Assembly: GCA_949294185.1 (NCBI GenBank)
Contig: CASFGA010000007.1
Span: 124,001 to 188,000, forward strand
DNA: 64,000 nt
From: an uncultured Bacteroides sp.
Lineage (GTDB): Bacteria; Bacteroidota; Bacteroidia; Bacteroidales; Bacteroidaceae
Direction: 5' to 3'
Positions 10,610 to 49,400 of this stretch are shown here, one piece after another (positions within the stretch are counted from its first letter, which is position 1; each line of letters opens with the position of its first letter). Made by a program: the position numbers and the translations under genes. Below the pieces are notes generated by a model. That model was not told where the DNA came from. It ran no database searches and saw nothing but the letters and a program-made list of their open reading frames with translations.

Positions 10610-10632
10610 AATTTAGGCCATAATCATAATTT

Positions 10633-10666
10633 CAGGCGGATGCATCATTTCCGATGTATCCGCCTG
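10633..10666. terminator. Strong hairpin after the glutaminase-like gene
   Basis: CAGGCGGATGCATC at 10633-10646 pairs with GATGTATCCGCCTG at 10653-10666, with one G:T pair and a 6-base loop. It sits 24 bp after the stop codon with a short pyrimidine-rich tail, so it is a likely transcription terminator. Confidence 0.7.
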
Positions 10667-10725
10667 TCGTTTCTACACAAATACAAGTCATAAAAAACTT
10701 TTCAACAAAATCCATTCTTTTCAGG

Positions 10726-10756
10726 TTTGCCGTTTCCCGGTTTTTTCGTTTCTTTG
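10726..10756 (+). promoter_or_regulatory. Possible promoter for the esterase operon
   Basis: TTTG at 10726-10729 and TTTCTTTG at 10749-10756 are 19 bases apart. The -7 element differs from TAnnTTTG at one position. The start codon is 44 bases further on. Confidence 0.45.
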
Positions 10757-10800
10757 TAAAAGTTTTCAAAGCCTTTTTATTTACTTAAAAACATAACACC

Positions 10801-12398: not shown

Positions 12399-12402
12399 TC
12401 CG

Positions 12403-18695: not shown

Positions 18696-19031
18696 AATCT
18701 TTATTTGGGGATAAAGGTAGAGATTTTCCCCGAGAAAAATGACGGAGTGCAAGAGGAAAAAATTTTTTCTCTAAGGCCGGAAAAATTTTCCATCCGGATA
18801 AAAAGAAGAATCGCCGGGCTCTTTCAGCCGGTAAATACTGACAAAATGTTACAAGCCAAGACAATATTTCATATTAAACGCATGAAAATCTGACAATTAT
18901 ACAGATTCGCCGAACTTTTTCCCAGTGGCAAAGATTTTGGATAGAGATAAGCGGTTACGTTTATCCGACAAGATAAACAGAAACCGAAAGCAAACTCTTA
19001 AGATAAAAAGATAACCAGAAAGGAGCGTTAT
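18696..19031. other. Divergent intergenic region upstream of clpB
   Basis: 336 bp between the unknown gene and clpB. AT-rich; I see no CIRCE element or clear TAnnTTTG element. Control of clpB is therefore not readable here. Confidence 0.4.
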
Positions 19032-33190: not shown

Positions 33191-33814
33191 TTATTTTGCC
33201 TTACAAAGTCTTTTCAACAAATCTTTATCATTGGCCATCAGCCTGCTTAACTCAATATGTATGCAAGCCTCATCCCTTAACAGTCTGGCTGTAGAGGTCG
33301 ACTGGTCGGCAGATACATCCCATGTCAGCAGAATTGCCTGTATCTTCAGTGCCTTTAACTTCTTTACCAACATTTCGTGGTCGGCATCTCCCGTAACAAG
33401 CACCACATAGTCGAAGTGCCGGATAGTGGACAACTCATAGGCTTCAAGGGCAAACCACACATCTATGCCTTTCTCTATTACCGTTGTATTTCCTTCTTTC
33501 TGCACTTCACGCAGATGCTTGTAATGGAATATCACATCATTCTCAATCAGAGAATCTTCAAATTTCCGTTCGCTATAAAGCAGATGCTTGCTGTTGGCGT
33601 CATTCACCCGGTAACGCCCGCGGAAATAATGGCTCTCCGTGATGTGACACACCGAAAGCTCCGACCCGCTCAGCTGACTAATCTGCTGGCGGATGAACGC
33701 CATCAGAGAAGTCACATTTATATTCAGGGACAAATTTTCCTCCAAAGCTTCATTGACTTTGGCATAATAGCCTCCGTCGATGAAAAGACCGATTGACTGG
33801 TAGTCCGCATTCAT
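33191..33814 (-). CDS. NYN-domain (PIN-like) ribonuclease, last gene of the cmr operon
   Basis: 207 aa covering one NYN/LabA-type PIN-like domain. The acidic residues of the active site are visible: IGLFIDGGYYAKVN (Asp13), KGIDVWFALEAYEL and DYVVLVTGDADHEMLVKKLKAL (paired Asp). The C-terminal RDEACIHIELSRLMANDKDLLKRL is helical. NYN proteins are metal-dependent ribonucleases in many organisms. The start is only 17 bp after the cmr6 stop, same strand, so it is most likely cotranscribed with the CRISPR effector genes, while the next gene downstream is 144 bp away. I do not know it as a standard Cas protein; an accessory RNase role is inferred from position only. Confidence 0.8.
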   Translation of the reverse strand: MNADYQSIGLFIDGGYYAKVNEALEENLSLNINVTSLMAFIRQQISQLSGSELSVCHITESHYFRGRYRVNDANSKHLLYSERKFEDSLIENDVIFHYKHLREVQKEGNTTVIEKGIDVWFALEAYELSTIRHFDYVVLVTGDADHEMLVKKLKALKIQAILLTWDVSADQSTSTARLLRDEACIHIELSRLMANDKDLLKRLCKAK

Positions 33815-33831
33815 ACTATATCATCTTTTTC

Positions 33832-34551
33832 TTAGTCAAACCTTAACTGCCCATACCCTACATTCGTCTTGGCTCCCACACCGACGGCTCCGAGTATTTT
33901 TTTAAACAGTTTTTCCTTAAACTCTGCCGTATATGTATTCTCGTTAATCTCCGAATCGTGCAGCCGGAAACGAAATTCTATCTTGCATCCCGGAGCAATC
34001 TTCAGCATCGTGATGGGAACGGGATCCTTCAAAGGCTCATCCTTATGCGGAGTAATGGAATCGTCTTCCAGTATGCGGCCATCGTATTCCCCCGTGATTA
34101 CCGCATCAAAGAATATATCCCTTTCGTATATCGACCTGCCTTCCCCTTCGAATATAGCCTTACACAAAGGCTTGACATCGCCTTTCCGACAGTCTTTTTC
34201 CTCCAGAAAAAATTCCTCAAAATACTGGCGCAGCACTCCCTTTACAGAAGAGCCGTATATCACCGGCATCCCCCAGGTATAGTCAAAGTGCAGACCTAAG
34301 TTATATCCGCCCTCAATGTTTTTAGAGTCATGCACAAGACCCGTTCCCGTCACCAGTCCCGGATACAAGATCGTGGCCGAAAATACATTTTCACAAGCCA
34401 GATTTTTTATTTCCACAAGAGCAGAAGACTTTATCCGCGTATTAATATCCCCCAAGTCTGCCTTTCCGCTGCCGAATACATAGTCATACTCAAGCTTTTT
34501 ATAATAGTCCTTATAAAAAAGCTTGCCGATGTTATTTATTGTCTTCACCAT
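33832..34551 (-). CDS. cmr6: Type III-B CRISPR RAMP protein Cmr6
   Basis: 239 aa. RAMP fold with ILYPGLVTGTGLVHDSKNIEGGYNLGLHFDYTWGMPVIYGSSVKGVLRQYF, the Cmr6 signature with a G-rich loop and the P-x-x-x-G-S-S-x-K-G motif. The C-terminal GAVGVGAKTNVGYGQL is the second glycine-rich loop. Cmr6 caps the 3' end of the crRNA in the complex. Its start overlaps the end of cmr5 by 20 bp. Confidence 0.93.
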   Translation of the reverse strand: MVKTINNIGKLFYKDYYKKLEYDYVFGSGKADLGDINTRIKSSALVEIKNLACENVFSATILYPGLVTGTGLVHDSKNIEGGYNLGLHFDYTWGMPVIYGSSVKGVLRQYFEEFFLEEKDCRKGDVKPLCKAIFEGEGRSIYERDIFFDAVITGEYDGRILEDDSITPHKDEPLKDPVPITMLKIAPGCKIEFRFRLHDSEINENTYTAEFKEKLFKKILGAVGVGAKTNVGYGQLRFD

Positions 34552-35053
34552 CTTTCTCCAATTTATAGGTTCTGATTACCTGCTTTAACGCTATCGAACA
34601 GTTCAAAATGTCCGTCTTTAGACTTTTTTCTTCCTGTTCCGAAAGTTTTTTCTCCCCGTCCGAAGGATTTTTCGGCACATCCAAAATATACCTTACTAAA
34701 GATTCCGTGCTTTCATATACTTTTTTATCCTCCTTGAGCCTCAGCATTCGGACGATTACCTCCAGCAAACATCTTCGGGCGGCCTTATTTTCTCCCGATT
34801 TCGGGGCATCCTGATAATAGATGGCCAAGGTCGGCTTCAGGCCTATCATCAGGATAGAAACTCCCAACGCCGCAACCTGACCGTTATAACTGTCATAAAT
34901 GGTGGTTTTGCCTTCATTTTGGGTGGTTTCACCTTCACCTTGAGTAGTTTTACCTTTATCTTTAAACAAAGGGCACTCCCATTTCTCGTCCTGCAAGACA
35001 GACTCGGCACGTTCCATCCATTCTTTATTCTCTTTCTTGTTCATAAGACTCAC
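34532..35053 (-). CDS. cmr5: Type III-B CRISPR small subunit Cmr5
   Basis: 173 aa, longer than the common 120-150 aa. The core is recognisable: NGQVAALGVSILMIGLKPTLAIYYQ and CLLEVIVRMLRL, then NCSIALKQVIRTYKLEKD, all helical as in Cmr5. The extra length comes from a Lys/Glu/Thr-rich insert of three near-repeats of KTTQGE (residues about 34-51) and an acidic Ser/Glu linker (NPSDGEKKLSEQEEKS). Cmr5 binds the target RNA filament beside Cmr4. It sits 3 bp after cmr4 and overlaps cmr6 by 20 bp. Confidence 0.88.
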   Translation of the reverse strand: MSLMNKKENKEWMERAESVLQDEKWECPLFKDKGKTTQGEGETTQNEGKTTIYDSYNGQVAALGVSILMIGLKPTLAIYYQDAPKSGENKAARRCLLEVIVRMLRLKEDKKVYESTESLVRYILDVPKNPSDGEKKLSEQEEKSLKTDILNCSIALKQVIRTYKLEKDGEDNK

Positions 35054-35056
35054 GTT

Positions 35057-35758
35057 TTACAGTTTCTTAAACAGACAATATCCGTAACCGATGGTGGCAT
35101 TTGCACCAATCTGAACAATCTTGTCTTTCAGTATATCCAAATCACCGTCATTCGGTGTCATGATAATGGCGGCCAACACCGATTGAGACGGGAGCACCTG
35201 CTCATACCAAAGGTTCACACTCTCGCCATCCTCCAGGCAATTGCGGGCGATAATGGGCAATGAGTCATCGCTGCACAGCTCTTTAAAGTTTTCAACTGAT
35301 TCAGACTCGGCCTTTAATACATTACAGTTCTCCTTTAATGCTTTACAGTTATCTTTTATTGACTCCTTACTGCAATTAGCCCCTAAAGCCGTTGCCTTAT
35401 CTACAAACGCCTGAATGACTTTATCGCAATAAGCCAGTTCATACACCTTGCCACCCTCGCACTGCTCCGGAATAAAAAGCAGGTTCGCATCAAAGAAAAC
35501 GGCACTTCCCTTTTGGGTATCCTCTTTTCCCTTCACCGAGCCGAACAAAGACTGCACATTAACCTTCCCTTTTTGAGGGCCGTTTGTGAGGTATTCCTTT
35601 ATCGCGCCCTTTAGCGAACTGGAGTTTATGCAGGGAATACCCGTCATAACATCCCGCTGGATGGCCTTGTCTATCACACCAAAGTTTCCTACACTTTCAT
35701 TTCCTACATGCAAATTGGTCTGGGGAATAATCAGCCAGACAGAAACACTGTTACTCAT
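35057..35758 (-). CDS. cmr4: Type III-B CRISPR backbone RNase Cmr4
   Basis: 233 aa. The RAMP start TNLHVGNESVGNFGVIDKAIQRDVMTGIPCINSSSLKGAIKEYL is typical of Cmr4. Asp30 in VIDKAIQR is at the position of the catalytic Asp that cuts target RNA at 6-nt intervals. The C-terminal LDILKDKIVQIGANATIGYGYCLFKKL has the usual glycine loop. Several copies form the crRNA-bound spine. It is shorter than the 290-300 aa typical of archaeal Cmr4. Confidence 0.93.
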   Translation of the reverse strand: MSNSVSVWLIIPQTNLHVGNESVGNFGVIDKAIQRDVMTGIPCINSSSLKGAIKEYLTNGPQKGKVNVQSLFGSVKGKEDTQKGSAVFFDANLLFIPEQCEGGKVYELAYCDKVIQAFVDKATALGANCSKESIKDNCKALKENCNVLKAESESVENFKELCSDDSLPIIARNCLEDGESVNLWYEQVLPSQSVLAAIIMTPNDGDLDILKDKIVQIGANATIGYGYCLFKKL

Positions 35759-35769
35759 ATCTTACTTTT

Positions 35770-36858
35770 TTATTTTGCAAATTGATTATAACCTATCTGT
35801 GTAAACTCTTTAAAACTGTCCAAATACTCGCAGAACTTATCTCGCGAATCCTTATCCTTAAAATAAAACACCGAGCCTGCCTCATACAGGTCATAGCGCT
35901 TTTGACGGATTGAATTGTATCTGGTATTATAATTTTGGGGATTTTTACTGTTCCCGGTATGCAAGAAGCGGAAAGGCCGGACCCGCGTAACCGCAAAACG
36001 AATCTTCAAGCCTTCTGTCGACTCTATATAGGCATCCGAAACAAGAACCACCTGCAAGTCATTCTTCGACTGGGGATAACCAACCGTATTCTGCTCCACC
36101 TCCAGCAAAAAGCTCGAGCTGTCTGCCCCTAACTGCACCAACCTATTCTGGTATTTTGTCAGGTCTACTTCCGTCTCCACCTCAAAAGCAAAACAAAAGC
36201 CCTTCTCCAAGCGGTAGGATATCTGTTTATAAAAAGCGGATGAATCTGATTTTCCCTTCTCATTCTTGGCTATCCCGATGCGGGAATCCTCCGTAAACAA
36301 ATCTTCCTCTTTCTTCAATACAGGAGACTTATCCAAAGAAGCATAACAGACATCCATGCCATCCTTGCCGGTATATGCTTCCTCCTTGCCGTCCTTTTCT
36401 ACCCAAATTTTCGGAAGCTCCACTTCCGCGCCATTGATGACGGCTTTCACAGGAGCATCTGCAAAGGCTATCTGCCAGTCGGGAAGCAGAATCCGAAAAT
36501 AGGCTTTAGCGGCTTTCTTATCATAAAGGAAGCAAGGGCCGATACTACTAATCTTGCCGAAATTGTTTGCCTTATGACCCTCCGAAACACAGAAGCTCTT
36601 TTCCCCTATCAAAGTATCCGCCTTATCCTTATTCTTAATCCGGTTGTTTTCTACATCAAACGCATTTCCATCGTTCGACAACAGCAGAAACCGCATCATC
36701 CCCAGCAAAGAAGTCTGCTGAGGGGTCTTGAAAGAATGGATAATGTAGCTGCCATATTTTTCATCGTCATTATCCTTTTTTCTTCCTGACTTAAAAGTCA
36801 TATCACCCCCGAAAAAATATTTTCCGAGCGGAGTCAGTTTTACCAAGTATTTATTCAT
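35770..36858 (-). CDS. cmr3: Type III-B CRISPR protein Cmr3
   Basis: 362 aa from ATG 36858, giving the family start YLVKLTPLGKYFFGGDMTF; an upstream in-frame ATG at 36906 lies in cmr2 and adds non-family residues. PQQTSLLGMMRFLLLSN is the conserved helix of Cmr3, and GFCFAFEVETEVDL near residue 220 leads to the second RAMP half with RVRPFRFLHTGNSKNPQNYN. Cmr3 binds the 5' handle of the crRNA and pairs with Cas10. The start overlaps the end of cmr2 by 8 bp. Confidence 0.9.
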   Translation of the reverse strand: MNKYLVKLTPLGKYFFGGDMTFKSGRKKDNDDEKYGSYIIHSFKTPQQTSLLGMMRFLLLSNDGNAFDVENNRIKNKDKADTLIGEKSFCVSEGHKANNFGKISSIGPCFLYDKKAAKAYFRILLPDWQIAFADAPVKAVINGAEVELPKIWVEKDGKEEAYTGKDGMDVCYASLDKSPVLKKEEDLFTEDSRIGIAKNEKGKSDSSAFYKQISYRLEKGFCFAFEVETEVDLTKYQNRLVQLGADSSSFLLEVEQNTVGYPQSKNDLQVVLVSDAYIESTEGLKIRFAVTRVRPFRFLHTGNSKNPQNYNTRYNSIRQKRYDLYEAGSVFYFKDKDSRDKFCEYLDSFKEFTQIGYNQFAK

Positions 36859-38404
36859 CGTCGTCGCCCTCCCCGTTAATGAATTTGGCTGTACGGAGCA
36901 TGCCATACATTGTAGTCAATATATTTGTTATCGGCTTAGTATCGCCCTTCTTATCCTTATCCGTTTCCACATAACTGTCAAACAATGCGCAAAGCAGTTC
37001 ACGGGTATATTTCAGATAAGTCTCATTTTCCGGATTTTCTTCCTCCATCACTTTATGATAGAAAGCGGCCATACGTTTTTCTCTGTCACCTCCATTCCGG
37101 ATTATTTCCAACAAATCTTCGTTCTGCCGAAGCTTATGCGCAATGGCCGATATTACTTTTTCAGATTCAGAACCTGTCATCAGTGTCGTAAATATCCGAT
37201 AAACCGACCCTTCGGAAGTATCCTTGCAGACAGAACCGGAGAATCCCGTTCCGCTATGCTTGCGCAAACACCAGGCTATGGCATTTTTCCCCTGCACGTT
37301 TTTGGCGGCACCAAACAACAATTCACGTGCTGACTTCAAGGCTTCATACAGCGGATATTTATAATAAGAGACGGACAAGCCATACGATAGCGAGGTATGC
37401 AGCTCTTTGCCGTCTTTCTCCGGACGGCTGATCTTATTTTCACCCATGGCTTCATCCACCGTCTTTTTATAGCAATCATCAATCTCAGACAAAAGTCCGA
37501 ATATATTCCCTTGGTCCGACACGACCGGAGCCAGAAACAGCAAATCATCCCCTCCCGCATAAATGGGCAAGCCACCGAATTCCTTGATCATCCCACACGC
37601 TTTCTCTCCATAGCCCAACAAAGCGGCAGACAAAGTCATCACCTCCTCATTCTTTAAGGCAGAAATGATTGAGCCCATATTGTCTCCATCCGCCTGCACC
37701 ACACAGATATACTTGTGATAAGAGTGATAGTCATTCTTAAATTCAGCTTTTATCTGCTTGTAAAACTCGTCCTCTGTTGTCTCTAAATCCACAGTTTCGT
37801 CTTTATTTTCCTTTTCACGTGCTTCGTCGCATGGCTCTTTCTCAATTTCTGCCTGGTCTTTCAACTTCAATAATTGATAAGTAGCTATTTTTTCCAAAGC
37901 CCGAATCTTGAATTCAGAATTGTTGAACGCATGTTCAAACAAAGGCGAATCGTTTTTTTTCAGAATAAGGCCTAATACCCTAACCCGACTTTCATCTTTT
38001 ACCGGACGGTTATACAGTTCCGTACAGTCAAGCAGCCGGTTCAGTGTCTTGATCACACCCTCTCCGTCTTCGCTTTCTATGGAAACATACATCACATTTA
38101 TATAATCTCTGCCTATCTCTGTTTTAGCAGAAAATGTACAAAAAGCCTTATCCACCACATCTTTTAATTCTTCATCCGTAATGTCTTTCAAGTAGATACG
38201 ATCGGGATACAACCCCACCCCTATTTTCTTGTTACTGTCCAAAGATGCCGGCGATACGATTGTCTTCCCTTTCTTCTTTATCTCTTCGATGATACATTCC
38301 ATCAGAAAAGAAAAAAGATAACTCGCCGCCCACAGTTCACGAGGCTTCCGTGCCATCGAGATTGTATCAATAATGGGACCGATATTTATTGCTGCGTATT
38401 TCAT
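36851..38404 (-). CDS. cmr2: Type III-B signalling subunit Cmr2 (Cas10), no HD domain
   Basis: 517 aa, clearly shorter than HD-containing Cas10 proteins. The N-terminus starts directly in the first palm-like domain (KYAAINIGPIIDTISMARKPRELWAASYLFSFLMECI) with no HD nuclease. The catalytic palm has VVQADGDNMGSI (Asp239) and LPIYAGGDDLLFLAP (GGDD at 284-287), so nucleotide-conjugating activity should be intact. With CorA and NrN encoded in the same operon, the expected product is SAM-AMP rather than cyclic oligoadenylate, as shown for B. fragilis Cmr. A long acidic insert (residues about 183-215) separates the domains. It overlaps cmr1 by 4 bp. Confidence 0.95.
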   Translation of the reverse strand: MKYAAINIGPIIDTISMARKPRELWAASYLFSFLMECIIEEIKKKGKTIVSPASLDSNKKIGVGLYPDRIYLKDITDEELKDVVDKAFCTFSAKTEIGRDYINVMYVSIESEDGEGVIKTLNRLLDCTELYNRPVKDESRVRVLGLILKKNDSPLFEHAFNNSEFKIRALEKIATYQLLKLKDQAEIEKEPCDEAREKENKDETVDLETTEDEFYKQIKAEFKNDYHSYHKYICVVQADGDNMGSIISALKNEEVMTLSAALLGYGEKACGMIKEFGGLPIYAGGDDLLFLAPVVSDQGNIFGLLSEIDDCYKKTVDEAMGENKISRPEKDGKELHTSLSYGLSVSYYKYPLYEALKSARELLFGAAKNVQGKNAIAWCLRKHSGTGFSGSVCKDTSEGSVYRIFTTLMTGSESEKVISAIAHKLRQNEDLLEIIRNGGDREKRMAAFYHKVMEEENPENETYLKYTRELLCALFDSYVETDKDKKGDTKPITNILTTMYGMLRTAKFINGEGDDDE

Positions 38405-39765
38405 AATGCATAAACAGATTTTTTATAGTTATCACGAATTTCCTTAAATATTTCTTGAATGCGTTTACTTTTCGCAGTATTCCGACCAACCAATATCATT
38501 TTAGGTATATCTACTCTATAATATACAAATTTCCGATCGGAATATTGCCTGAATATGAAATCAAAATAATCTTTCATCGAAAATTCTGGATAAATTTCCA
38601 ATGGCAAAAAACCATTTTCAGCACAACAATCTACTGATATATTAAACTTAGATTTCAAGAATTTTTCAGGCACATCATTATACATTATATATATCTTATA
38701 AAACCCATTTTCTTTTATTGGCTTCAATAAAACAGGCGATTTCATTCGCTGAATTTCATCGGACTGTTCTGCTGTCTTACGAAAGCCCTTTTTTAAGGTA
38801 AAAAAATCTTTGTACATTAATCGTCCACCTGAAATTACAGGCTTTTTCCATCGTTCTATTGTAGACAAACCCAAGCAATCTTTAAACAAGAATTCACCTT
38901 CATCCTGAGATGTATAAGTCAAGACATCACTCTTATTGTTATGATTAGCTAATTCCTTCTCATTTATATCTTCACTATTATACGCATCAGACAGCTGATC
39001 ATAAAAAACAGTCTTTATTGTCTTCTTCTCCCATTGCTCTCCTTTTTCTTTTGCGTAAGCAAACATCAAAGACTTCATATAAAACCTTTCTCCAAAACAA
39101 TCATTTATTCCCGAGCGTATAGCTTTATAAAACCATTCCATCTCATTAAAAAGCACTTTTTCTCCACCCTTACATGTAAAATAAGGATAAACAGGCATAG
39201 TCTCTTCCTTTACCTTTACTTCCTCAACAGCATTTTTCCATTTTTCATCGACAACCAATGAAAAACTTCCATAACCTTTACTCTGACGAGTTCCAAAATT
39301 TGTTTGCAGAAAAAAAGATTGCAAATATTTTAATACGACTTTTATCACATCGTCACTCAAAGAATAAAGCGTAAGCGTTATATCATTACACTTCGAAAAA
39401 CATTTCTTAATATTTTTCTTACTTTTATCTTTTTCATTCTGCATATTACCAAAAAACATCGGGGATGCGATTGGTATTTCTTGTCCATTTCTATTTCTCC
39501 TGTAACCCCAATATCCTTCTATAGGAGATAGTATTACATCTTTTCCAATTATCCGCATCTTATAATTCAAGGCCGGATGATCTCCTTTTCCTATCAGCCA
39601 CTTTTTCCTTTTTGCCTCTTCAAATTCTTCTTTGCCCAACTTCCCTAAAATGAACCTGTCCAGTTTAGGTTTCACTTCCGAAGCACGGAGTGTGGCACCA
39701 TACTGTCCGGGCTGAAAATGAATCAGCGGAGTATGCTGCTTTAATGTTACTGTCAGCGTTTTCAT
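38401..39765 (-). CDS. cmr1: Type III-B CRISPR RAMP protein Cmr1
   Basis: 454 aa. The start MKTLTVTLKQHTPLIHFQPGQYGATLRASEVKPKLDRFI is a Cmr1 pattern, followed by FGTRQSKGYGSFSLVV, a glycine-rich RAMP loop after about residue 170. The rest is a large second domain without catalytic motifs (typical of two-domain Cmr1). The gene is AT-richer than the cmr genes around it. Cmr1 completes the foot of the complex at the 3' end of the crRNA. It overlaps by 4 bp with the membrane protein gene upstream and with cmr2 downstream. Confidence 0.85.
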   Translation of the reverse strand: MKTLTVTLKQHTPLIHFQPGQYGATLRASEVKPKLDRFILGKLGKEEFEEAKRKKWLIGKGDHPALNYKMRIIGKDVILSPIEGYWGYRRNRNGQEIPIASPMFFGNMQNEKDKSKKNIKKCFSKCNDITLTLYSLSDDVIKVVLKYLQSFFLQTNFGTRQSKGYGSFSLVVDEKWKNAVEEVKVKEETMPVYPYFTCKGGEKVLFNEMEWFYKAIRSGINDCFGERFYMKSLMFAYAKEKGEQWEKKTIKTVFYDQLSDAYNSEDINEKELANHNNKSDVLTYTSQDEGEFLFKDCLGLSTIERWKKPVISGGRLMYKDFFTLKKGFRKTAEQSDEIQRMKSPVLLKPIKENGFYKIYIMYNDVPEKFLKSKFNISVDCCAENGFLPLEIYPEFSMKDYFDFIFRQYSDRKFVYYRVDIPKMILVGRNTAKSKRIQEIFKEIRDNYKKSVYAL

Positions 39766-40115
39766 AACCTCGATATATTTTTGTTTTCTTCTTCTATTTT
39801 ATTGATTTTCTCATTTGCTTTCCGCAGTTCTTCGCGCAGACCTAACACTTCCTTCATCACTTCAGAAACCCATGCCCCTTTCCACTCTTCGCAATCCTTT
39901 GCTTTCTGTTCCGCAATTCGTTTCTGAGCTTTTACTTCCAACTTTTGATATACACAATAAACACCGGCTACCAAACTTATTATCAACAATGTAGCCAATG
40001 ATCCAACCACAGTCATCACGCAATCCACCTTAAATCCTCGATAAACCAAGAAGCAGCAGATGACTGTTATCGCTGCAATCAAGGCAATCCCTAAGCTAAT
40101 CCACACCCATTTCAT
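39762..40115 (-). CDS. Unknown two-helix membrane protein with C-terminal coiled coil, inside the CRISPR operon
   Basis: 117 aa. Two hydrophobic helices (about residues 3-26, from VWISLGIALIAAITVICCF, and about 34-58, from MTVVGSLATLLIISLVAGVY) are joined by a short loop. A charged helical tail of about 58 residues follows (KLEVKAQKRIAEQKAKD ... LREELRKANEKINKIEEENK) with heptad spacing. This places the tail in the cytoplasm if both ends are inside. No family is recognised. It overlaps corA by 4 bp upstream and cmr1 by 4 bp downstream (ATGA each), so its translation is locked into the operon. The size and layout suggest an accessory to the CorA channel or a second membrane effector; both are inference. 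Confidence 0.85.
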   Translation of the reverse strand: MKWVWISLGIALIAAITVICCFLVYRGFKVDCVMTVVGSLATLLIISLVAGVYCVYQKLEVKAQKRIAEQKAKDCEEWKGAWVSEVMKEVLGLREELRKANEKINKIEEENKNISRL

Positions 40116-41581
40116 AATCTTCTCTTTTTACTATAAATGAAACATAACGCAAACAAAATACCTGCAATCAACGTAACCAACTGCCATCCGAATCCGGAAA
40201 CCTTCACCACGCTGCAAACCTCATTCATCCCCCAAAAGCCGGTTATGATGGAAACAGGCAGGAACAGCGTAGCCAGATTGTTCAGCAAGGTAGCCTTCTT
40301 GCTCCGGTCGCGGTCATCCATCAGCGATACATATTGGTGCAGTTCGCCAATCTCTCCGTCCAGGTCTTTTACATAATCCTCCATCCTCAGATTCTTCTGC
40401 AACATGTCATACAGCTCTATACCCTGATCCTGGGCTGTCACCTCTCTGAAGTAAATCTGATTGACAAAATGAATATATTCCTTATAAAGCGAACTGATTC
40501 GTTTGGATATCACTTCCGTTTCCTGATGCGACAGATGGCTTACCTCTGTCACTTCTTCCGAAAAGCGAAGCATGGAAGCCCTCTGCATCAAAACCAATTC
40601 CACCATCCGCGCATAAATAGTCTCAAAATACGTAAGCAGATAGTCCGGCACTCCATTGTCTGTCAGGTAAACCATCGAATAACGGGTTGCGCCATACAGT
40701 GAGTTCCACTTTTCCCATCGTGGATAGGTATGTTTCTTCAGCAGTTCATATTTCATTTCCTCATTCTGACACGAACAAAAACTTCCGTCAACAAACAAAA
40801 AGCGATACCAGAAATCATCATCACTGCCTTTTCTCAGATATTCATCCAATTTCCCTTTGTATGATTTACACAAATCATTGTTCTTATACCAGGAAAAAAC
40901 AAACATCCGGTCGTCTATCACCGGCTCAAACGACAGATTAACCGCCACCTCCTCTACCAGTTTCGTGATGAAAGACGCAGGCTTCCAGGCATCATTTATC
41001 TGATAACCGCAGAAATCTTCGCGTAACTCTTTTCCAAGTCCTTTAATCTCTATACTTTCCGCCGTTTCGTTGCGCAAAACGATGTCTCCGAAAAACGGCG
41101 GCATAATCCGGCGGCCATATTGGTTGATAAGCAGAATGTCGGCAGGAGCAGACTGGTCTTTCTGGTCATTGCCCAAATAGAGAGACAGAAAGCCCACGCC
41201 CGTAGCATACAGGTTCAGATTCATGGCATCCATCCTCAGGCTGTAAGGTTTTTCCCGGTTCTTGACCTTTATCAGATAGCGGATATCGCTTCCTTCATTC
41301 TGAGGTTCCAGACGCTCAAAATGACGAATCAGGCTCTCCCTACTTCCGTCGTCATACAACACCTTATGCACAAACTGGTAATAATAATTCTTCTCATTAT
41401 ACAGATTGACGGCATCAATGCCCGATGCGGAAGTAGTCCGCTCCCATCCTCCCGTTTCCTGAAAGCGGATGCGGTTCAAGTCTATCTGGTCAGACAGATC
41501 CATGCCGTTTCCGCCTTCCACATTCCACTTGAAAGGAAAGTAAAAAATGTGGTAACTGAAATATTTGTCTTTCGTAGTCAT
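40112..41581 (-). CDS. CorA-family membrane effector of type III CRISPR (SAM-AMP class)
   Basis: 489 aa. A large soluble N-terminal part (about 430 aa) precedes two transmembrane helices at the C-terminus. The first ends in TGFWGMN (residues 447-453), the GMN signature of CorA magnesium channels, and the second is WQLVTLIAGILFALCFIY. A long helix before the membrane (about residues 340-435, with VSLMDDRDRSKKATLLNN) is the usual CorA stalk. The N-terminal domain is enlarged compared with transport CorA. B. fragilis CorA from a type III-B locus is known to be triggered by SAM-AMP and to cause membrane disruption. It overlaps nrn and the small membrane protein by 4 bp each. Confidence 0.9.
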   Translation of the reverse strand: MTTKDKYFSYHIFYFPFKWNVEGGNGMDLSDQIDLNRIRFQETGGWERTTSASGIDAVNLYNEKNYYYQFVHKVLYDDGSRESLIRHFERLEPQNEGSDIRYLIKVKNREKPYSLRMDAMNLNLYATGVGFLSLYLGNDQKDQSAPADILLINQYGRRIMPPFFGDIVLRNETAESIEIKGLGKELREDFCGYQINDAWKPASFITKLVEEVAVNLSFEPVIDDRMFVFSWYKNNDLCKSYKGKLDEYLRKGSDDDFWYRFLFVDGSFCSCQNEEMKYELLKKHTYPRWEKWNSLYGATRYSMVYLTDNGVPDYLLTYFETIYARMVELVLMQRASMLRFSEEVTEVSHLSHQETEVISKRISSLYKEYIHFVNQIYFREVTAQDQGIELYDMLQKNLRMEDYVKDLDGEIGELHQYVSLMDDRDRSKKATLLNNLATLFLPVSIITGFWGMNEVCSVVKVSGFGWQLVTLIAGILFALCFIYSKKRRL

Positions 41582-42336
41582 AATCGCTTTATCCTGTCAA
41601 TCATTTCCATTAATTCTTTCTGCGAATACCAGTTTTGGGAAGTTCCTACGTAACCGGATTCTCCACCGCCGCAAAACATCTTCCCTTCACCGATTTCTTT
41701 TTCAAACAACGCCGCCACCTGCAGAGCCTTTTCACCGTAATATACCCATTCACTGTCTGTATAGACCAACAGCCGGCGATAAGGAAACAGGCGGTCGCAA
41801 ACCGGAGAGAAGCGCGAATTGAAGGCACGGACAATATACAAGTCTCCCACATCCTCACGATTCTCCGCTATGGCTTTTTCCGCCAAGCGCTCGTCTTCTT
41901 CCGTCACGCCCTGCGCCTTGCGGTCTGCCCGCCTAATCCGCTCGATTTCCTCCGGTGCCGCCCCTATCTGCAGCATGCCGGGAATGTAGGCCCGGTCGTT
42001 GGCCGCAACCAGCTGCATGTGTCTGTCCATCGGAAAATCAAGAATCTCCGCCACCTGTTCCAAAGCACTGGGCAAATGAGACAGGTCATTATGATGGTCT
42101 ATCCTTCTGTATACAGACGGCAAAGACATGTCCTCGCGCAGTTCGATGCCATATACGGTTCTTCTCTGCCGCTCCGCTTCGGATATTTCCTTACGGTAAC
42201 TGCTTGCCACGGCATTCTGCCAGTTCAAACGACGATCCGCATAGTCCGCCTTCCGGCTCTCAAGCAAGCCGCGGATGGTCAGCATCTCCAAATCATATCC
42301 GCCCAAAAGAAAAAGGCTGTCTTCTGCTTTATTCAT
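41578..42336 (-). CDS. DHH-family phosphodiesterase, NrN-like (SAM-AMP off-switch)
   Basis: 252 aa. RRIDHHNDLSH (Asp80-His81-His82) is the DHH motif. A C-terminal DHHA1-like tail contains MFCGGGESGYVG (GGG at 223-225), the substrate-binding glycine motif of nanoRNase-like enzymes. The N-terminal GGYDLEMLTIRGLL replaces the usual first DxD motif start with a variant. In B. fragilis, NrN next to CorA degrades SAM-AMP and so resets signalling. Position and motifs agree with that role. It overlaps cas6 upstream and corA downstream by 4 bp each. Confidence 0.87.
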   Translation of the reverse strand: MNKAEDSLFLLGGYDLEMLTIRGLLESRKADYADRRLNWQNAVASSYRKEISEAERQRRTVYGIELREDMSLPSVYRRIDHHNDLSHLPSALEQVAEILDFPMDRHMQLVAANDRAYIPGMLQIGAAPEEIERIRRADRKAQGVTEEDERLAEKAIAENREDVGDLYIVRAFNSRFSPVCDRLFPYRRLLVYTDSEWVYYGEKALQVAALFEKEIGEGKMFCGGGESGYVGTSQNWYSQKELMEMIDRIKRL

Positions 42337-42998
42337 AACCGCTTGACTATTCCATTGCTCATGCTTGCCGATTTACCAAGACCGATATCTTCGGGCAAGC
42401 TGACATTGCAGCTGAATCTGGCTGAAAAACTCATCAACTCCACTCCCTTATAATCCACCAGACCGGATGCCTCCAACTGCTGTATCCGGCAGATTACCGG
42501 TCGCTCAAAAAAGCTACCGACTCCTTTGGCAAAGGAAAGAATATTCCCGACCAGAATCTTTTCCAACATAGAGATACGTTCGGCCAGGCTCTCTGTCTGT
42601 TGATAAATGCGATAATTTGTTCCGTTCAGAGGCAGCCACCTGCTGATGGCATAAGTCCGGGATGCTTCATCACACACTACCGCAAATTTTTCCGAACGAA
42701 TCACCGCTACATTCATGACCGTCTGTCTGTTTCCCAAGCTGAATGAAAGACTCGGCCTTCCGCCAAACAGTTCAACCAAGGCTTCCGCACCCTGATTTAT
42801 CCCCATCAAGGCGGCACAGCCCTTTATCCGCTTGTATTGCACCAACGGATAAGCATAATGAAACCCTTCTGCACAGTGGTTGTGAAACAACGCATTTCCT
42901 TCGGAAAGCCGGATAACACTTCCCCGGAAATAAGGTATTTCAGCCGAAGCAATCTTTGTATCAAACAAGACTGTAGCCAAGCGTATCGTGTTCATCAC
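42333..42998 (-). CDS. cas6: CRISPR pre-crRNA endonuclease Cas6 (Bacteroidetes type)
   Basis: 221 aa. The N-terminal half has the Bacteroidetes Cas6 pattern IPYFRGSVIRLSEGNALFHNHCAEGFHYAYPLVQYKRIKG, with His residues that could act as the general acid. The C-terminal half is a second ferredoxin-like fold ending in the glycine-rich loop DIGLGKSASMSNGIVKRL. It processes the 35-nt repeats into crRNAs with an 8-nt handle. It is the first gene after array A and starts a chain of 4-bp overlaps down to cmr2. Confidence 0.88.
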   Translation of the reverse strand: MMNTIRLATVLFDTKIASAEIPYFRGSVIRLSEGNALFHNHCAEGFHYAYPLVQYKRIKGCAALMGINQGAEALVELFGGRPSLSFSLGNRQTVMNVAVIRSEKFAVVCDEASRTYAISRWLPLNGTNYRIYQQTESLAERISMLEKILVGNILSFAKGVGSFFERPVICRIQQLEASGLVDYKGVELMSFSARFSCNVSLPEDIGLGKSASMSNGIVKRL

Positions 42999-43504: not shown

Positions 43505-44446
43505 TGTTTTATCCTTATTCTAATGGAATACTCCCTGACGATTAATTCAGAAGCCGTTGGAAGCTCTTTTGTCTGTCTTAATCCTTATTCTAATGGAATA
43601 CTCCCTGACAAATTTTTGCTTTTAAAGATGTTATATTGCGGGGTCTTAATCCTTATTCTAATGGAATACTCCCTGACCTCTCAGGAGGTTATCGAGGAAG
43701 GTCTTGATTACGTCTTAATCCTTATTCTAATGGAATACTCCCTGACAGCGTACGGACTTAAAGGCCTGATTGTTCCAAAGAGTCTTAATCCTTATTCTAA
43801 TGGAATACTCCCTGACATCCAAACGACAGCCGGCATCGCCCTGACTTCAGCGTCTTAATCCTTATTCTAATGGAATACTCCCTGACCGGAATTTAAAATA
43901 CAAGACGCCAACCTGATGCTGTCTTAATCCTTATTCTAATGGAATACTCCCTGACAAACCCCCGACGAAAAGATTCTCCTGCTCACGGCTTGTCTTAATC
44001 CTTATTCTAATGGAATACTCCCTGACTTCCTTATTTTTGCAGGATGAAAAAAAGAACAAGTGTGTCTTAATCCTTATTCTAATGGAATACTCCCTGACAA
44101 CGGTATAGGTTTTAAGGCGCCGTTCGTCTCGTCTTAATCCTTATTCTAATGGAATACTCCCTGACATCGTGGAATATGGCATTCTGCCGAAGTTGCTCGT
44201 CTTAATCCTTATTCTAATGGAATACTCCCTGACGAATGTGTATAACTGGTGGATAGCATGTCTGCCAATGTCTTAATCCTTATTCTAATGGAATACTCCC
44301 TGACCGACAGCGAAAACGGTATCATTACGGCTAAGAGAATGTCTTAATCCTTATTCTAATGGAATACTCCCTGACAGGTGTTAGGACTGCAAGGAAAGAA
44401 GAAGCAGGAGTGTCTTAATCCTTATTCTAATGGAATACTCCCTGAC
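43505..44446 (-). CRISPR. CRISPR array A: 14 repeats of 35 bp, 13 spacers
   Basis: The plus-strand repeat is GTCTTAATCCTTATTCTAAT followed by GGAATACTCCCTGAC. Repeats start at 43505 (5' end degenerate, GTTTTATCC), 43575, 43643, 43712, 43782, 43852, 43921, 43992, 44064, 44131, 44199, 44270, 44341 and 44412. Spacers are 32-37 bp. Transcription is leftward: the decayed repeat is on the left, the leader with promoters on the right, and on the minus strand the repeat ends in ATTAAGAC, a typical 8-nt 5' handle. Every spacer is different from those of array B by eye. The cas6-cmr operon follows downstream. Confidence 0.98.
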
Positions 44447-44545
44447 AATCTATCAGAGAGTGAGTTACACTTTTTGCCGTTCATCTTTTCATACAGTTTC
44501 TCCCTTTTCCGCCAGGGAGTTAGTCCAATTAGAATACTTTTTTCG

Positions 44546-44577
44546 CAAATGTAGGGATTTGAAAGATACATTCCAAA
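44546..44577 (-). promoter_or_regulatory. Leader A promoter, proximal
   Basis: On the minus strand TTTG (plus 44574-44577), 20 bases, then TACATTTG (plus 44546-44553): an exact match to the Bacteroides consensus. Transcription would start near 44540, about 90 bases before the first repeat. Confidence 0.8.
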
Positions 44578-44756
44578 TAAAAACAACGCTTTTTTCAAAC
44601 ATTCATCTGGATATCAACACCTTGCATTTTCGCAAGACAAAACGCCGTCTAAACTGTTTACGGGATTTGCGAAAACGGCGGAAAGAGGGATTTGCAAGCG
44701 CTTGATTATGAATACACAACTTCATAGAGCGAAGGCATGATGAGGATGCTTTTTCG

Positions 44757-44787
44757 CAAATGTAACAACTAAAAATCACAAAACAAA
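44757..44787 (-). promoter_or_regulatory. Leader A promoter, distal
   Basis: On the minus strand TTTG (plus 44784-44787), 19 bases, then TACATTTG (plus 44757-44764). It shares the element TACATTTGCGAAAAA with the proximal promoter. Confidence 0.65.
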
Positions 44788-44943
44788 CTCTTGCGAACTT
44801 TTTGTCTGCCGGGAGAAAACGAGGAAATGCATCCAACCCATTACATATCAACGGTTTAACAAAACCAGAAATCTTCGCAAATAAAAATCTTTACATCCGT
44901 TTCCGCATTTACAATGAGTCAGCAAACCACAAACTCAAAACCT

Positions 44944-45237
44944 TTATACCACTGATATCTTTTCATACTTTTTCCGCAACGGAGGCTGATAAACAATCTT
45001 CGCATAACAGTCCAGACAGATGGGATAGTATATCACCGTATCTTCACGCGGCTTGATTTTTCCCCCAATGTCATTACGCAGCTTTTCATACTGAGCATCC
45101 GTCAGCAGACACTCGAAGACACTGTAGTTTACACGGACTCCCACTTTTTCCAGCAGCTTCACCACACGGTTCCGACGTCTGTCATCAGACACATCATAAG
45201 CCACCACGATAAAATTCTTCTTCGCTCTCATCACCAT
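44944..45237 (-). CDS. cas2: CRISPR integration protein Cas2
   Basis: 97 aa with the ferredoxin-like Cas2 start NFIVVAYDVSDDRRRNRVVKLLEKVGVRVNYSVFEC, where the metal-site Asp follows the first strand (AYDVSDD). It forms the integration complex with Cas1. Its start overlaps the end of RT-Cas1 by 7 bp. The three possible start codons (MVM...) do not change the call. Confidence 0.96.
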   Translation of the reverse strand: MVMRAKKNFIVVAYDVSDDRRRNRVVKLLEKVGVRVNYSVFECLLTDAQYEKLRNDIGGKIKPREDTVIYYPICLDCYAKIVYQPPLRKKYEKISVV

Positions 45238-47501
45238 TTGGCTATATAAGGTTTGTAATGTTTCCCTGTTTCAATGAAATCGGCTATCTCTTTCGCCTGC
45301 CGACGAATAATCTGTTCCATCGTCATCTCCTCACCCCGATACCGCTCATAACGGTTCAAACGTTCAAGCACACTTTTGGCTAACAGTTTCCGGGTATCAT
45401 CCGACAGAAGTCCCTTTTCCACTTTCAGCTGCTTGCCCTTTTGCACCAAAGTCACAACCACTCTGTCCACCACCTGCGAACGAAACAGTTCCACCACATC
45501 ATAGACAAATGTAGGCTTACCCGACTGGCGAACATGAACAATGCTGTCGAACGGATTCAGCTTTGCCCCAAGCAATGCCTGCCATACCCGTGCATACAAA
45601 ATGGCATAGCCGTAATTAAGCATACAGTTCACCAAGTCTGTCGCTCCTTTCCGTTCCCGCTTTACAAATCCCACCTCATCATCCGAAAGCAGCTCGCGGA
45701 TATATGCCCAATATTTCACGGCACCTTGTGACTCATACCCCACCAGCAAAGTCAGATAATCTGCATCATCCGTGCGGTCGGCATGCAGAAACTCCCTGAA
45801 ACGGACATGAAAAGCGGCCATATCCTCATATTTACCTTTCAACGCATCATAACAATGCTTGTGATATTTATGAAAATATTTCAACAGACTGAACTGATTG
45901 CGCAGTTTTGCCCGCACAATGGAAGAGGCCAACTCCAACCGCTTTTCCGTTCCACACTGAGCCTGCTTGTTCCACAGCGTGCTTTCGATGTATTTGTTCG
46001 ACAAGACAGATCCGGTATGCACCCCCGAAGAATTAAAGAAGTCGATGGTTATCTTATTGGCGAGGCAATAATCTATCAGATTGGAAGACAATGTCACCCC
46101 CTTGCTGCCAATGGTAATGTGTGAAAGCATGCCTGCCGGAATCTGCCGCACAATCTTTCCCTGCTGTTTCACAGTGACTCCTTTACCTGAAAGCCCTACA
46201 AAACAGCCATAGGTATTTATCAAAAGTTCACTACATTCAGCCTCACGCTTCCTGTATTCTGCCTTCCGTTGGTTGATGATACGCCTGTTCTGCTCTTTCG
46301 CCCTCTGTTCTTTGGCAATGCCCTTGCAGAGATCATACACTTCGATATAGTCTTGAAGTATCCGCTTCTTATGCAGCTGATATTCATTAGAAAGATAGTC
46401 TATTTCAGACACCATCCGCTTCAACACAGCCCGGTTTGCTATCTCACTGTGCGACTCTTCTATCATGCGCTTTATCCGGCTGTAAAGACAGTCATCCAAG
46501 CCACGGAGCACATGCTGAGGAAGCAAGACGGCATAATAATTCTTTACGCCCCTCCACGAGCGAAGGCTTTCCGGCGACAAGCCTTTAGAAGTAAGAGTCA
46601 AAGACTCTATCCTTTCCTTCAGGTCGGCCTCCTTCTTTTGCGAAATGTTCAATCCGTCTTTCGAAACCGTGATGCCTAAAAATTCAAATCCCTTGCGCAA
46701 TTCCACAATTATCGGCGGATTCAGCTTCAGCCCCAAATGGGTTTGCAGATATACCGACAACTGACCAAGTAGCCCTTTTGCCTGCTCGTGTGATTCGCAC
46801 AACAGACAAAAGTCATCGGCATAGCGCACATACGAACGGCACAAAGTCAACACATATTTGTCGAACGGATGAAGATAAAGGTTAGACAACAAAGGGGAAA
46901 GGATTGCACCTTGGGGAACCCCATCCACCGCATCACTCCACTTCAACCGCTTGTTGACAACCCCCATCTGTACCGACAGCATGATAAGCCGCACCACCTC
47001 TTCGTCCGGAATCAGGGTGTGAAGACGGGCGGCCAATAGATGATGGTTGATGGAATCAAAATAGTTGTCGATGTCAAGACGCAAAGCCCAACGGTTCTTC
47101 TTTTTCACACACTCATTATATACCCGTCTTACCGCCTTCGCATGCCCTTTGTTGGGACGGTAAGCGTAACTGTTTTCCACAAAAAGATTTTCAAACAAAG
47201 GCTCAACCAAAGTCTTGATGGCACACTGCACAATCTTATCCTTTACCGACAGCAGTCCCAACTTCCGAACCTCTTTCTTCTTTTTGGGAATCTCAATGCG
47301 AAGATAAGGTTCGGGAGCCCATGCGCCGGAACGCAGTTCTTCTGACAATTCGGCGATATATTTTGCCAAATCATCTTCAAAACAAGCCAAAGTAACCCCA
47401 TCTATTCCACCCGCCGCATTTTTGCCTTTCACAATCTTCCACGCTTCATACAGCGTTTCTTCCCGACACAATGTGGCATAAAGAGAAGTTTGTGCATCCA
47501 T
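45231..47501 (-). CDS. cas1: Reverse transcriptase-Cas1 fusion
   Basis: 756 aa from ATG 47501; the upstream in-frame ATG at 47555 translates array sequence and is rejected. Residues about 1-340 are a group II intron-like reverse transcriptase: LRLDIDNYFDSI (Asp143/Asp145), VPQGAILSPLLSN and SYVRYADDFCLL (YADD at 227-230), all intact. A linker rich in Lys/Arg/Glu (about 345-425) leads to Cas1 (from about residue 430). Its metal ligands are present as LVGYESQGAVKYW (Glu590), IVHVRQ (His656) and FVYDVVELFR (Asp668, Glu671). There is no N-terminal Cas6 domain, unlike some relatives. It should allow spacer capture from RNA. It begins 13 bp after the last, degenerate repeat of array B. Confidence 0.97.
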   Translation of the reverse strand: MDAQTSLYATLCREETLYEAWKIVKGKNAAGGIDGVTLACFEDDLAKYIAELSEELRSGAWAPEPYLRIEIPKKKKEVRKLGLLSVKDKIVQCAIKTLVEPLFENLFVENSYAYRPNKGHAKAVRRVYNECVKKKNRWALRLDIDNYFDSINHHLLAARLHTLIPDEEVVRLIMLSVQMGVVNKRLKWSDAVDGVPQGAILSPLLSNLYLHPFDKYVLTLCRSYVRYADDFCLLCESHEQAKGLLGQLSVYLQTHLGLKLNPPIIVELRKGFEFLGITVSKDGLNISQKKEADLKERIESLTLTSKGLSPESLRSWRGVKNYYAVLLPQHVLRGLDDCLYSRIKRMIEESHSEIANRAVLKRMVSEIDYLSNEYQLHKKRILQDYIEVYDLCKGIAKEQRAKEQNRRIINQRKAEYRKREAECSELLINTYGCFVGLSGKGVTVKQQGKIVRQIPAGMLSHITIGSKGVTLSSNLIDYCLANKITIDFFNSSGVHTGSVLSNKYIESTLWNKQAQCGTEKRLELASSIVRAKLRNQFSLLKYFHKYHKHCYDALKGKYEDMAAFHVRFREFLHADRTDDADYLTLLVGYESQGAVKYWAYIRELLSDDEVGFVKRERKGATDLVNCMLNYGYAILYARVWQALLGAKLNPFDSIVHVRQSGKPTFVYDVVELFRSQVVDRVVVTLVQKGKQLKVEKGLLSDDTRKLLAKSVLERLNRYERYRGEEMTMEQIIRRQAKEIADFIETGKHYKPYIAKW

Positions 47502-47514
47502 AGTCTTTGTCTTT

Positions 47515-48936
47515 AATGTTATCCTTATTCTAATGGAATACTCACAGACATTCAAGAAAATGAAAAAAATATATTAGCCATAGTGTCTTAATCCTTATTC
47601 TAATGGAATACTCACAGACCATCTTTTACACTTCCGAATGGAGAGAGAAAAGCTTGTCTTAATCCTTATTCTAATGGAATACTCACAGACGTCTGTAGAT
47701 GACGACAGAGAGACTCCGAGCTGGCTGTCTTAATCCTTATTCTAATGGAATACTCACAGACACAAATTTTTATATTCAATTATCATCCAGATTATGTCTT
47801 AATCCTTATTCTAATGGAATAGAATTATAAGCCGTGGGTAAGAGCAGGATGGGCGTCTTAATCCTTATTCTAATGGAATACTCACAGACTCTTTTCGTGT
47901 TTTTGGCACTCGCTACCGTACTGTCTTAATCCTTATTCTAATGGAATACTCACAGACATTAAAAAAATTATTAACTTAAATAGGTATTATTGTCTTAATC
48001 CTTATTCTAATGGAATACTCCCTGACTGGAAAATAAGAATAGCTGCAACTTTATATTCTTTCGTCTTAATCCTTATTCTAATGGAATACTCCCTGACACC
48101 ACGAATTTTCGATTAGGGTCAGAACGAAGTCGTCTTAATCCTTATTCTAATGGAATACTCCCTGACACTACTTCGTCGGCGAAGGTACACGCGACTACTC
48201 CGTCTTAATCCTTATTCTAATGGAATACTCCCTGACGACCGCGTGCTGTACACTCACTACATCGGCGCTTGTCTTAATCCTTATTCTAATGGAATACTCC
48301 CTGACTATATATACGACGAGGAAACAAACGGCTGCGTTTTTGTCTTAATCCTTATTCTAATGGAATACTCCCTGACCGTGAGTATTAACAGCGCAAGCGC
48401 GCAGAGTGTTGTCTTAATCCTTATTCTAATGGAATACTCCCTGACAAACGTTCGTCGCTACGGTTAATTTTACCAAAATTGTCTTAATCCTTATTCTAAT
48501 GGAATACTCCCTGACGAAGTCATTGACTGGTGACTTGCGAGGCGAGTTGGTGTCTTAATCCTTATTCTAATGGAATACTCCCTGACAAACAAACAAAATG
48601 AGAAAACAGTTAAAACATTATCGTCTTAATCCTTATTCTAATGGAATACTCCCTGACTTATTTTGAGTCGTTTAACGAAGCGAACGAAGCTATGTCTTAA
48701 TCCTTATTCTAATGGAATACTCCCTGACGGCAAAAAAGGTGCTGCAATGACCCGTGCTATGGTGTCTTAATCCTTATTCTAATGGAATACTCCCTGACAT
48801 AGACTATGGCAGACTCCATGACTTGTACTTAGGTCTTAATCCTTATTCTAATGGAATACTCCCTGACTAGAGGTTGAATTCGAGGGAAAGAACTACACTG
48901 TGTCTTAATCCTTATTCTAATGGAATACTCCCTGAC
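47515..48936 (-). CRISPR. CRISPR array B: 21 repeats of 35 bp, 20 spacers, two repeat versions
   Basis: Repeats start at 47515 (degenerate), 47585, 47656, 47727, 47796 (cut to 25 bp), 47855, 47923, 47992, 48063, 48132, 48202, 48271, 48342, 48411, 48481, 48552, 48623, 48694, 48764, 48833 and 48902. The leader-distal repeats, where complete, end in CTCACAGAC, while the 14 leader-side ones end in CTCCCTGAC as in array A. The direction is leftward as for array A. RT-cas1 begins 13 bp after the last repeat, so the adaptation genes are probably read from the array transcript. Confidence 0.98.
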
Positions 48937-49400
48937 AATCTATCAGAGAGTGAGTTACACTTTTTGCCGTTCATCTTTTCATACAGTTTTTTCCCTTTCC
49001 GCCAGGGAGTTAGTCCGATTGGAACGCTTTTTTCGCAAATGTAGGGATTTGAAAGATACATTCCAAATAAAAACAACGCTTTTTTCAAACATTCATCTGG
49101 ATATCAACGACTTGCTTTTTCGCAAGACAAAACGCCGTCTAAACTGTTTACGGGATTTGCGAAAACGGCGGAAAGAAGGATTTGCAAGCGCTTGATTATG
49201 AATACACAACTTCATAGAGCGAAGGCATGATGAGGATGCTTTTTCGCAAATGTAGCAACTAAAAATCACAAAACAAACTCTTGCGAACTTTTTGTCTGCC
49301 GGGAGAAAACGAGGAAATGCATCCAATCCGTTACATATCAACGGTTTAACAGAAAAAGAAATCTTCGCAAATAAAAATCTTTACATTCCGTCTTCGTTTT
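48937..49400 (-). promoter_or_regulatory. Leader of CRISPR array B, near-copy of leader A
   Basis: The 450 bp from 48937 parallel leader A exactly in spacing (offset 4490). The two promoter pairs are kept: TACATTTG at 49036-49043 with TTTG at 49064-49067 (20 bases apart), and TACATTTG at 49247-49254 with TTTG at 49274-49277 (19 apart), all read leftward. Identity ends near 49387. Confidence 0.85.

What the first reader, a model, noticed from the sequence alone, without database searches (positions are those of the whole stretch)
43540..48901. All spacers can be read as coding sequence on the strand opposite to the crRNA
Seen: in each of the 33 spacers I found a stop-free plus-strand frame, many with very protein-like sequence (for example 48306-48341 reads YIYDEETNGCVF, 44166-44198 reads IVEYGILPKLL, 47821-47854 reads NYKPWVRAGW). 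Two look like gene starts: 44027-44063 with an A/T-rich leader then ATG and MKKRTS, and 48587-48622 with ATG and MRKQLKHY. crRNAs are made from the minus strand, so they would be antisense to mRNA. A stop-free frame in 35 bases is common by chance, so the argument rests on composition and the two starts. Such a bias is expected if RT-Cas1 takes spacers from mRNA or if selection keeps only antisense guides.
Basis: partly seen in the sequence, partly recalled or inferred. Interest (0 to 1): 0.7.

Follow-up and report, generated by a model that had tools for sequence, protein, structure and literature searches.

The report
Antisense guides in RT-Cas1 CRISPR arrays
The spacers in these two CRISPR arrays do lean strongly towards guides that can pair with messenger RNA, but CRISPR systems of this class without a reverse transcriptase lean the same way, so the bias most likely reflects keeping only guides that work rather than copying from RNA.

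Summary
The 33 spacers, their coordinates and the minus-strand crRNA direction are confirmed. The stop-free-frame argument fails: 33/33 spacers have an open plus frame, but so do 32/33 on the minus strand (62 vs 61 open frames). A codon-likelihood test does find the bias. The plus strand looks like sense for about 90% of the 33 spacers (flip P about 3e-4). The same holds for 318 spacers of 22 related RT-Cas1 loci (ML 0.85-0.87, CI 0.78-0.92), beyond what dinucleotide composition explains.

The bias does not need the reverse transcriptase. Type III arrays with no RT detected give 0.79-0.83 (n=139; RT vs no RT, P 0.2-0.7), while DNA-targeting Cas9 arrays give 0.48 (n=468).

'IVEYGILPKLL' (44166-44198) is the antisense strand of a host TolC-family gene. 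The 'MKKRTS start' (44027-44063) best matches a host intergenic terminator. No phage or plasmid target was found for any own spacer. In a relative, 5 secure (8 with weak ones) spacers hit a crAss-like phage, all antisense.

Best reading: an ordinary Cmr/CorA/NrN type III-B system with RT-Cas1, whose bias is kept by selection. Known in kind; its strength, RT-independence and an RT-array-specific purine at spacer nucleotide 1 are new details.

The parts
43505..44446 (-). CRISPR array 1: 14 repeats (35 nt, GTCAGGGAGTATTCCATTAGAATAAGGATTAAGAC in crRNA sense), 13 spacers; degenerate leader-distal repeat at the left end
44447..44709 (-). Leader-side flank of array 1 (300-nt block spanning last repeat and flank is 96% identical to that of array 2)
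   Evidence: family D5
44944..45237 (-). cas2
   Evidence: Pfam CRISPR_Cas2 4.6e-23
45231..47504 (-). RT-Cas1 fusion (group-II-intron-like RT, then Cas1)
   Evidence: RVT_1 4.8e-32 and Cas_Cas1 1e-58; TIGR04416 and TIGR00287; PADLOC Cas1_IIIb 5e-190; YADD motif in the translation
47515..48936 (-). CRISPR array 2: 21 repeats, 20 spacers; the leader-distal repeats carry the variant ...CTCACAGAC and one is truncated before 47822
48937..49199 (-). Leader-side flank of array 2
   Evidence: family D5
44166..44198 (-). Spacer 10: perfect 33/33 match to a host TolC-family efflux gene; the crRNA is identical to (sense), not antisense to, that mRNA
44027..44063 (-).
48868..48901 (-). Spacer 33, newest in array 2, strong coding call on plus (EVEFEGKNYT); a 25/27-nt similarity to a groES gene of another genus is at chance level
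42333..42998 (-). cas6 (Cas6b)
   Evidence: Pfam Cas6b_C 1.2e-28 and Cas6b_N 1.6e-20
41578..42336 (-). DHH-family phosphodiesterase of the CorA-associated kind (NrN-like)
   Evidence: PADLOC DHH_CorA 1.9e-75
40112..41581 (-). CorA-like membrane effector
   Evidence: PADLOC CorA 3.8e-125; Pfam CorA just under its cut-off
33832..39765 (-). cmr operon: cmr1 38401-39765, cmr2/cas10 36851-38404 (GGDD motif), cmr3 35770-36906, cmr4 35057-35758, cmr5 34532-35053, cmr6 33832-34551
   Evidence: for the motif
33191..33814 (-). NYN-domain ribonuclease, matching in kind the crRNA-trimming NYN of the B. fragilis system
   Evidence: Pfam NYN 1.4e-10; PMC11346440

Best explanation
The two arrays belong to a type III-B (Cmr) CRISPR system with an RT-Cas1/Cas2 adaptation module, Cas6, and CorA, NrN-like and NYN ancillary proteins. 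crRNAs are transcribed from the minus strand (inferred from leader, repeat handle and terminal repeats). Most of them, about 90%, are antisense to protein-coding transcripts of elements that are mostly unknown (shown statistically). The bias exists because a Cmr complex acts only when its crRNA pairs with a transcript, so antisense spacers that protect the cell are retained, and sense ones survive mainly as passengers or as harmless copies of host genes (inferred). The RT may widen the pool of sources to RNA, but it is not what creates the strand bias.
For: Codon-likelihood bias in the own arrays and in 318 spacers of related RT-Cas1 loci, with 20 of 20 RT loci of at least 5 spacers positive. 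Equal bias in 139 spacers of type III loci where a tblastn search found no RT, and none in 468 Cas9-system spacers of the same class of bacteria. The calibration returns 0.50 when the truth is 0.5, and 0.84-0.98 when the truth is 1.0. Direct targets: five spacers of relative G274 match the first genes of what looks like the early operon of a crAss-like phage with 1-5 mismatches, all antisense, and three weaker ones fall in the same 1.7 kb in the same direction. The perfect host-derived spacer is in the harmless sense orientation, as expected if self-antisense guides are purged (PMC5576922). Literature: Thermus type III bias arises by selection (PMC7515739), and type III spacers average 65% coding-strand, 88% in Moraxella III-B (PMC8482600).
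Against: The newest spacers are at least as biased as the oldest (leader-proximal third 0.88-0.92, distal 0.81); simple post-acquisition filtering might predict the reverse, though intervals overlap. No target was found for any own spacer in phage, plasmid or (six patterns) IMG/VR data. Absence of RT in control loci was judged on windows of at most 20 kb, so an RT elsewhere in those genomes is not excluded. RT-Cas1 arrays carry an end signature that non-RT arrays lack, so RT-Cas1 may contribute something of its own.
Confidence: 0.72

Rival explanations
1. RT-Cas1 sets the orientation: it copies mRNA into cDNA, and the cDNA strand is inserted so that the crRNA is antisense from the start.
For: The bias is very strong for standing arrays and is not weaker in the newest spacers. 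RT-Cas1 arrays alone show a purine at crRNA spacer nucleotide 1 (64% vs 45% background; own 29/32, P 2e-7), which could mark where a CRISPR-associated RT begins de novo synthesis (priming opposite C residues is reported in PMC10415136). M. mediterranea RT-Cas1 without interference shows a moderate antisense bias that vanishes without the RT (PMC5576922).
Against: Type III arrays with no RT detected are as biased. The terminal purine stays at the array end even in spacers scored as sense-oriented. In M. mediterranea the intrinsic bias is only marginal (PMC5576922).
Confidence: 0.17
2. The signal is a compositional artefact, for example purine skew chosen by Cas1 or crRNA chemistry, with no link to coding sense.
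For: About a third of the log-likelihood ratio survives dinucleotide shuffling, and the sense strand is 54.8% purine in RT arrays.
Against: The remaining two thirds is codon-phased (z about 3 for own, 7 for relatives). Real protospacers in a crAss-like phage are antisense to ORFs. Cas9 arrays show nothing.
Confidence: 0.05
3. Many spacers come from host transcripts, and the arrays are partly a record of the cell's own RNA.
For: 2 of 33 own spacers match the host genome (33/33 and 26/37 nt). One spacer of relative G033 matches its own genome 34/35.
Against: 31 of 33 own spacers and all 27 tested spacers of G274 have no second host match. G274 spacers match a phage.
Confidence: 0.06

Closest known systems
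Bacteroides fragilis type III-B Cmr system with RT-Cas1, CorA, NrN and NYN (SAM-AMP signalling; PMC10600005, PMC11346440)
   Same: Same gene set: Cmr1-6, Cas6, CorA, DHH phosphodiesterase, NYN ribonuclease; reverse-transcriptase-fused Cas1 is named among the adaptation genes of this group
   Different: Different species; SAM-AMP production and effector activity not tested here; two arrays flanking RT-Cas1/Cas2
Marinomonas mediterranea type III-B RT-Cas1 system (PMC5576922, PMC11014452)
   Same: RT-Cas1 fusion with Cas2 serving a Cmr system; antisense guides needed for interference
   Different: There RT-Cas1 is fused to Cas6 and measured orientation bias without interference is marginal; here only standing arrays were measured, and they are about 90% antisense
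Coding-strand bias of type III spacers in general (PMC8482600; PMC7515739)
   Same: Spacers favour guides complementary to mRNA; selection is the favoured cause
   Different: Here measured without needing targets, stronger than the 65% average, and compared directly between RT and non-RT type III arrays of one bacterial class

Membership tests
Type III-B (Cmr) CRISPR-Cas | cas10/cmr2 plus cmr1 and cmr3-6 | tested here: met
   PADLOC and NCBIfam hits that together cover all six subunits
Type III-B (Cmr) CRISPR-Cas | crRNA with 8-nt repeat-derived 5' handle from Cas6 | not testable with these tools
   cas6 present and the repeat ends ATTAAGAC; processing not measured
RT-Cas1 adaptation module | RT domain fused to Cas1 with cas2 adjacent | tested here: met
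RT-Cas1 adaptation module | Spacer capture from RNA | not testable with these tools
   Needs an in vivo acquisition assay; sequence bias alone cannot show it
CorA/NrN (SAM-AMP) type III group | corA effector and CorA-associated phosphodiesterase beside cmr genes | tested here: met
   CorA 3.8e-125 and DHH_CorA 1.9e-75
CorA/NrN (SAM-AMP) type III group | SAM-AMP made on target RNA binding | not testable with these tools
   Biochemistry needed
Type III coding-strand spacer bias | Significant excess of mRNA-complementary guides | tested here: met
   direct targets in a relative
RT-dependent strand bias | Bias stronger with RT than without | tested here: not met
   RT vs no-RT type III arrays, Mann-Whitney P 0.2-0.7; absence of RT judged on windows of at most 20 kb

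The most novel reading that the evidence does not exclude
In Bacteroidia RT-Cas1 systems, new spacers are inserted in a fixed, transcript-determined orientation, and the purine at spacer nucleotide 1 is the mark of RT-primed cDNA. This would be an orientation mechanism that the M. mediterranea studies found absent or weak.
Probability: 0.14. Interest if true: 0.68.

Novelty: new member of a known kind. Interest (0 to 1): 0.4.

Why it matters
A target-free test shows that standing type III arrays are roughly 80-95% antisense whether or not the system has a reverse transcriptase. That makes 'does RT-Cas1 orient its spacers?' testable against a clear baseline. The purine end signature found only in RT-Cas1 arrays, and a crAss-like phage operon hit repeatedly by one array, give concrete handles on where RT-Cas1 spacers come from, a question described as enigmatic (PMC5513706).

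Tried and rejected
Stop-free frames as strand evidence: rejected, equal on both strands.
Direct targets for own spacers: none in INPHARED phages or PLSDB plasmids with sensitive blastn; none in IMG/VR for six synonym-tolerant patterns. The synonym-tolerant patterns would have favoured the plus-strand reading had they hit, so they were only a search aid.
INPHARED searches with relatives' arrays: no credible hit (the 38-nt, 87% E. coli phage match at E 0.2 is chance). A second doubly-hit sequence (L049) gave nothing in IMG/VR.
Spacer 33 as a groES target: 25/27 nt in one of 399 genomes at per-genome E 0.0013, absent from the own groES; chance-level.
Spacer 29 as a gene start: the 24-nt match in G287 lies at the end of a gene and is chance-level.
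General enrichment of gene starts as proof of RNA capture: rejected as general. The motif ATGARRAAR is 19 sense / 0 antisense in 386 RT spacers, but 8 of 19 are in one array (L045); a looser start test is at the phage background.
Family-wide DNA search scored only two candidates per genome, so its negatives are weak.

Full report
What is there. The window (G000:C7:124001-188000) holds a complete type III-B system on the minus strand: NYN ribonuclease, cmr6, cmr5, cmr4, cmr3, cmr2/cas10, cmr1, a 117-aa ORF with no family match, CorA, a CorA-associated DHH phosphodiesterase, cas6, then array 1, cas2, RT-Cas1 and array 2. This gene set is that of the B. fragilis Cmr system known to signal with SAM-AMP (PMC10600005; PMC11346440). 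The arrays hold 13 and 20 spacers. Both have the same 300-nt block at their right end and degenerate repeats at the left, and the repeat on the minus strand ends in ATTAAGAC, so the crRNA strand is minus. That is inference from anatomy; no RNA data exist here.

Checking the observation. Every spacer has an open plus frame, but 32 of 33 have an open minus frame, with 62 and 61 open frames in all. I instead scored each spacer by codon usage as sense or antisense, with models trained on 185 host genes outside the window and on genes of two Bacteroides phages. Trained on host genes or on the other phage, this-86% of known coding 35-mers correctly (63.5% for a crAss-trained model on host genes). 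The 33 spacers give 23-25 positive, a maximum-likelihood sense fraction of 0.88-1.0 (CI 0.65-1.0), and an orientation-flip P of 1-4e-4. Dinucleotide shuffles keep only a third of the signal.

Enlarging the sample. RT-Cas1 relatives were gathered by protein and by repeat, giving 318 further spacers in the same crRNA orientation: sense fraction 0.85-0.87 (0.78-0.92). Pooled with the own arrays and two more RT loci, 375 spacers give z of 9-10, and all 20 loci with five or more spacers lean the same way. On test sequences where every segment is sense, the estimator returns 0.84-0.98; where half are, 0.50. The true fraction could thus be close to 1.

Is it the reverse transcriptase? Type III loci of the same bacterial class with no RT found in the window by tblastn give 0.79-0.83 from 139 spacers; Cas9 loci give 0.48 from 468 spacers. 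RT and non-RT arrays do not differ (P 0.2-0.7), while both differ from Cas9 arrays (P 3e-7 to 5e-20). The bias goes with RNA-guided RNA recognition, not with RT. This fits published work: type III spacers average 65% coding-strand and 88% in Moraxella III-B (PMC8482600); in Thermus the bias comes from selection (PMC7515739); and M. mediterranea RT-Cas1 by itself orients spacers only marginally (PMC5576922).

Direct targets. None was found for the own spacers among phages, plasmids or six IMG/VR patterns. The host genome itself gives two. Spacer 8 matches 26 of 37 nt in a terminator between convergent genes; it is not a gene start, and its handle-proximal end is mismatched. In relative G274, a 23-nt pattern shared by two overlapping spacers found one 93-kb contig. 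Five G274 spacers match it with 1-5 mismatches and three more weakly, all within 1.7 kb and on one strand; the five secure ones are antisense to leftward genes. The first of these genes, hit by four of the five, has homologues in Crassvirales, where it lies upstream of replication genes. Calling this the early operon is inference from gene order.

How it most likely works. Spacers are captured by RT-Cas1-Cas2, from DNA or RNA (not tested). crRNAs are cut by Cas6, possibly trimmed by NYN, and loaded in Cmr. Only a crRNA antisense to a transcript lets Cas10 signal to CorA, so antisense spacers are the ones retained; self-antisense ones are purged or tolerated only with mismatches near the handle. 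The retained bias is shown; the cause is inferred.

What remains open. RT-Cas1 arrays, unlike non-RT and Cas9 arrays, favour a purine at the first crRNA spacer position (64% vs 45%; own 29 of 32). It does not switch ends with the inferred orientation, so it may be a Cas1 or end-processing preference rather than a priming mark. The newest spacers are no less biased than the oldest, which leaves oriented capture possible.

Noticed in passing
window arrays; L033, L034, L044, L051, L054, L092, L095: First spacer nucleotide after the crRNA handle is a purine in 29 of 32 own spacers and in 64% of 386 spacers of RT-Cas1 loci, but not in non-RT type III or Cas9 arrays.
   Followed up: partly
L045 (same as L093), array 8079-9549: Array of Xylanibacter muris with 23% GC spacers; 8 of 21 read as an A/T-rich leader followed by ATG and lysine/arginine-rich codons (0.9 expected from shuffles), as if the array targets translation starts.
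   Followed up: partly
L052 array near 10150-13100; G689:C1 (L169) 10084-11709: Five to eight of 39 spacers of one array hit a 1.7-kb stretch of a 93-kb crAss-like phage contig, mainly one 178-aa gene.
   Followed up: yes
L092 (G495:C81), 18625-19855: Identical 35-nt repeat and 74-78% identical RT-Cas1 in a genome of another bacterial family, suggesting transfer of the locus.
   Followed up: no
window 47515-47957: The leader-distal repeats of array 2 carry CTCACAGAC instead of CTCCCTGAC, and one repeat has lost about nine bases before 47822.
   Followed up: no
L154:7816-7850 (G033:C2:33816-33850): A spacer of the X. muris array matches its own genome 34/35 and is antisense to a 146-aa ORF, with the mismatch at spacer nucleotide 3.
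   Followed up: partly
L049:13279 and L049:13851: Two spacers of one array share 24 nt and then diverge on one side, pointing to variant targets or altered ends.
   Followed up: no
window 39762-40115: 117-aa minus-strand ORF between CorA and cmr1 with an apparent membrane-spanning N terminus (my reading of the translation) and no NCBIfam match.
   Followed up: no
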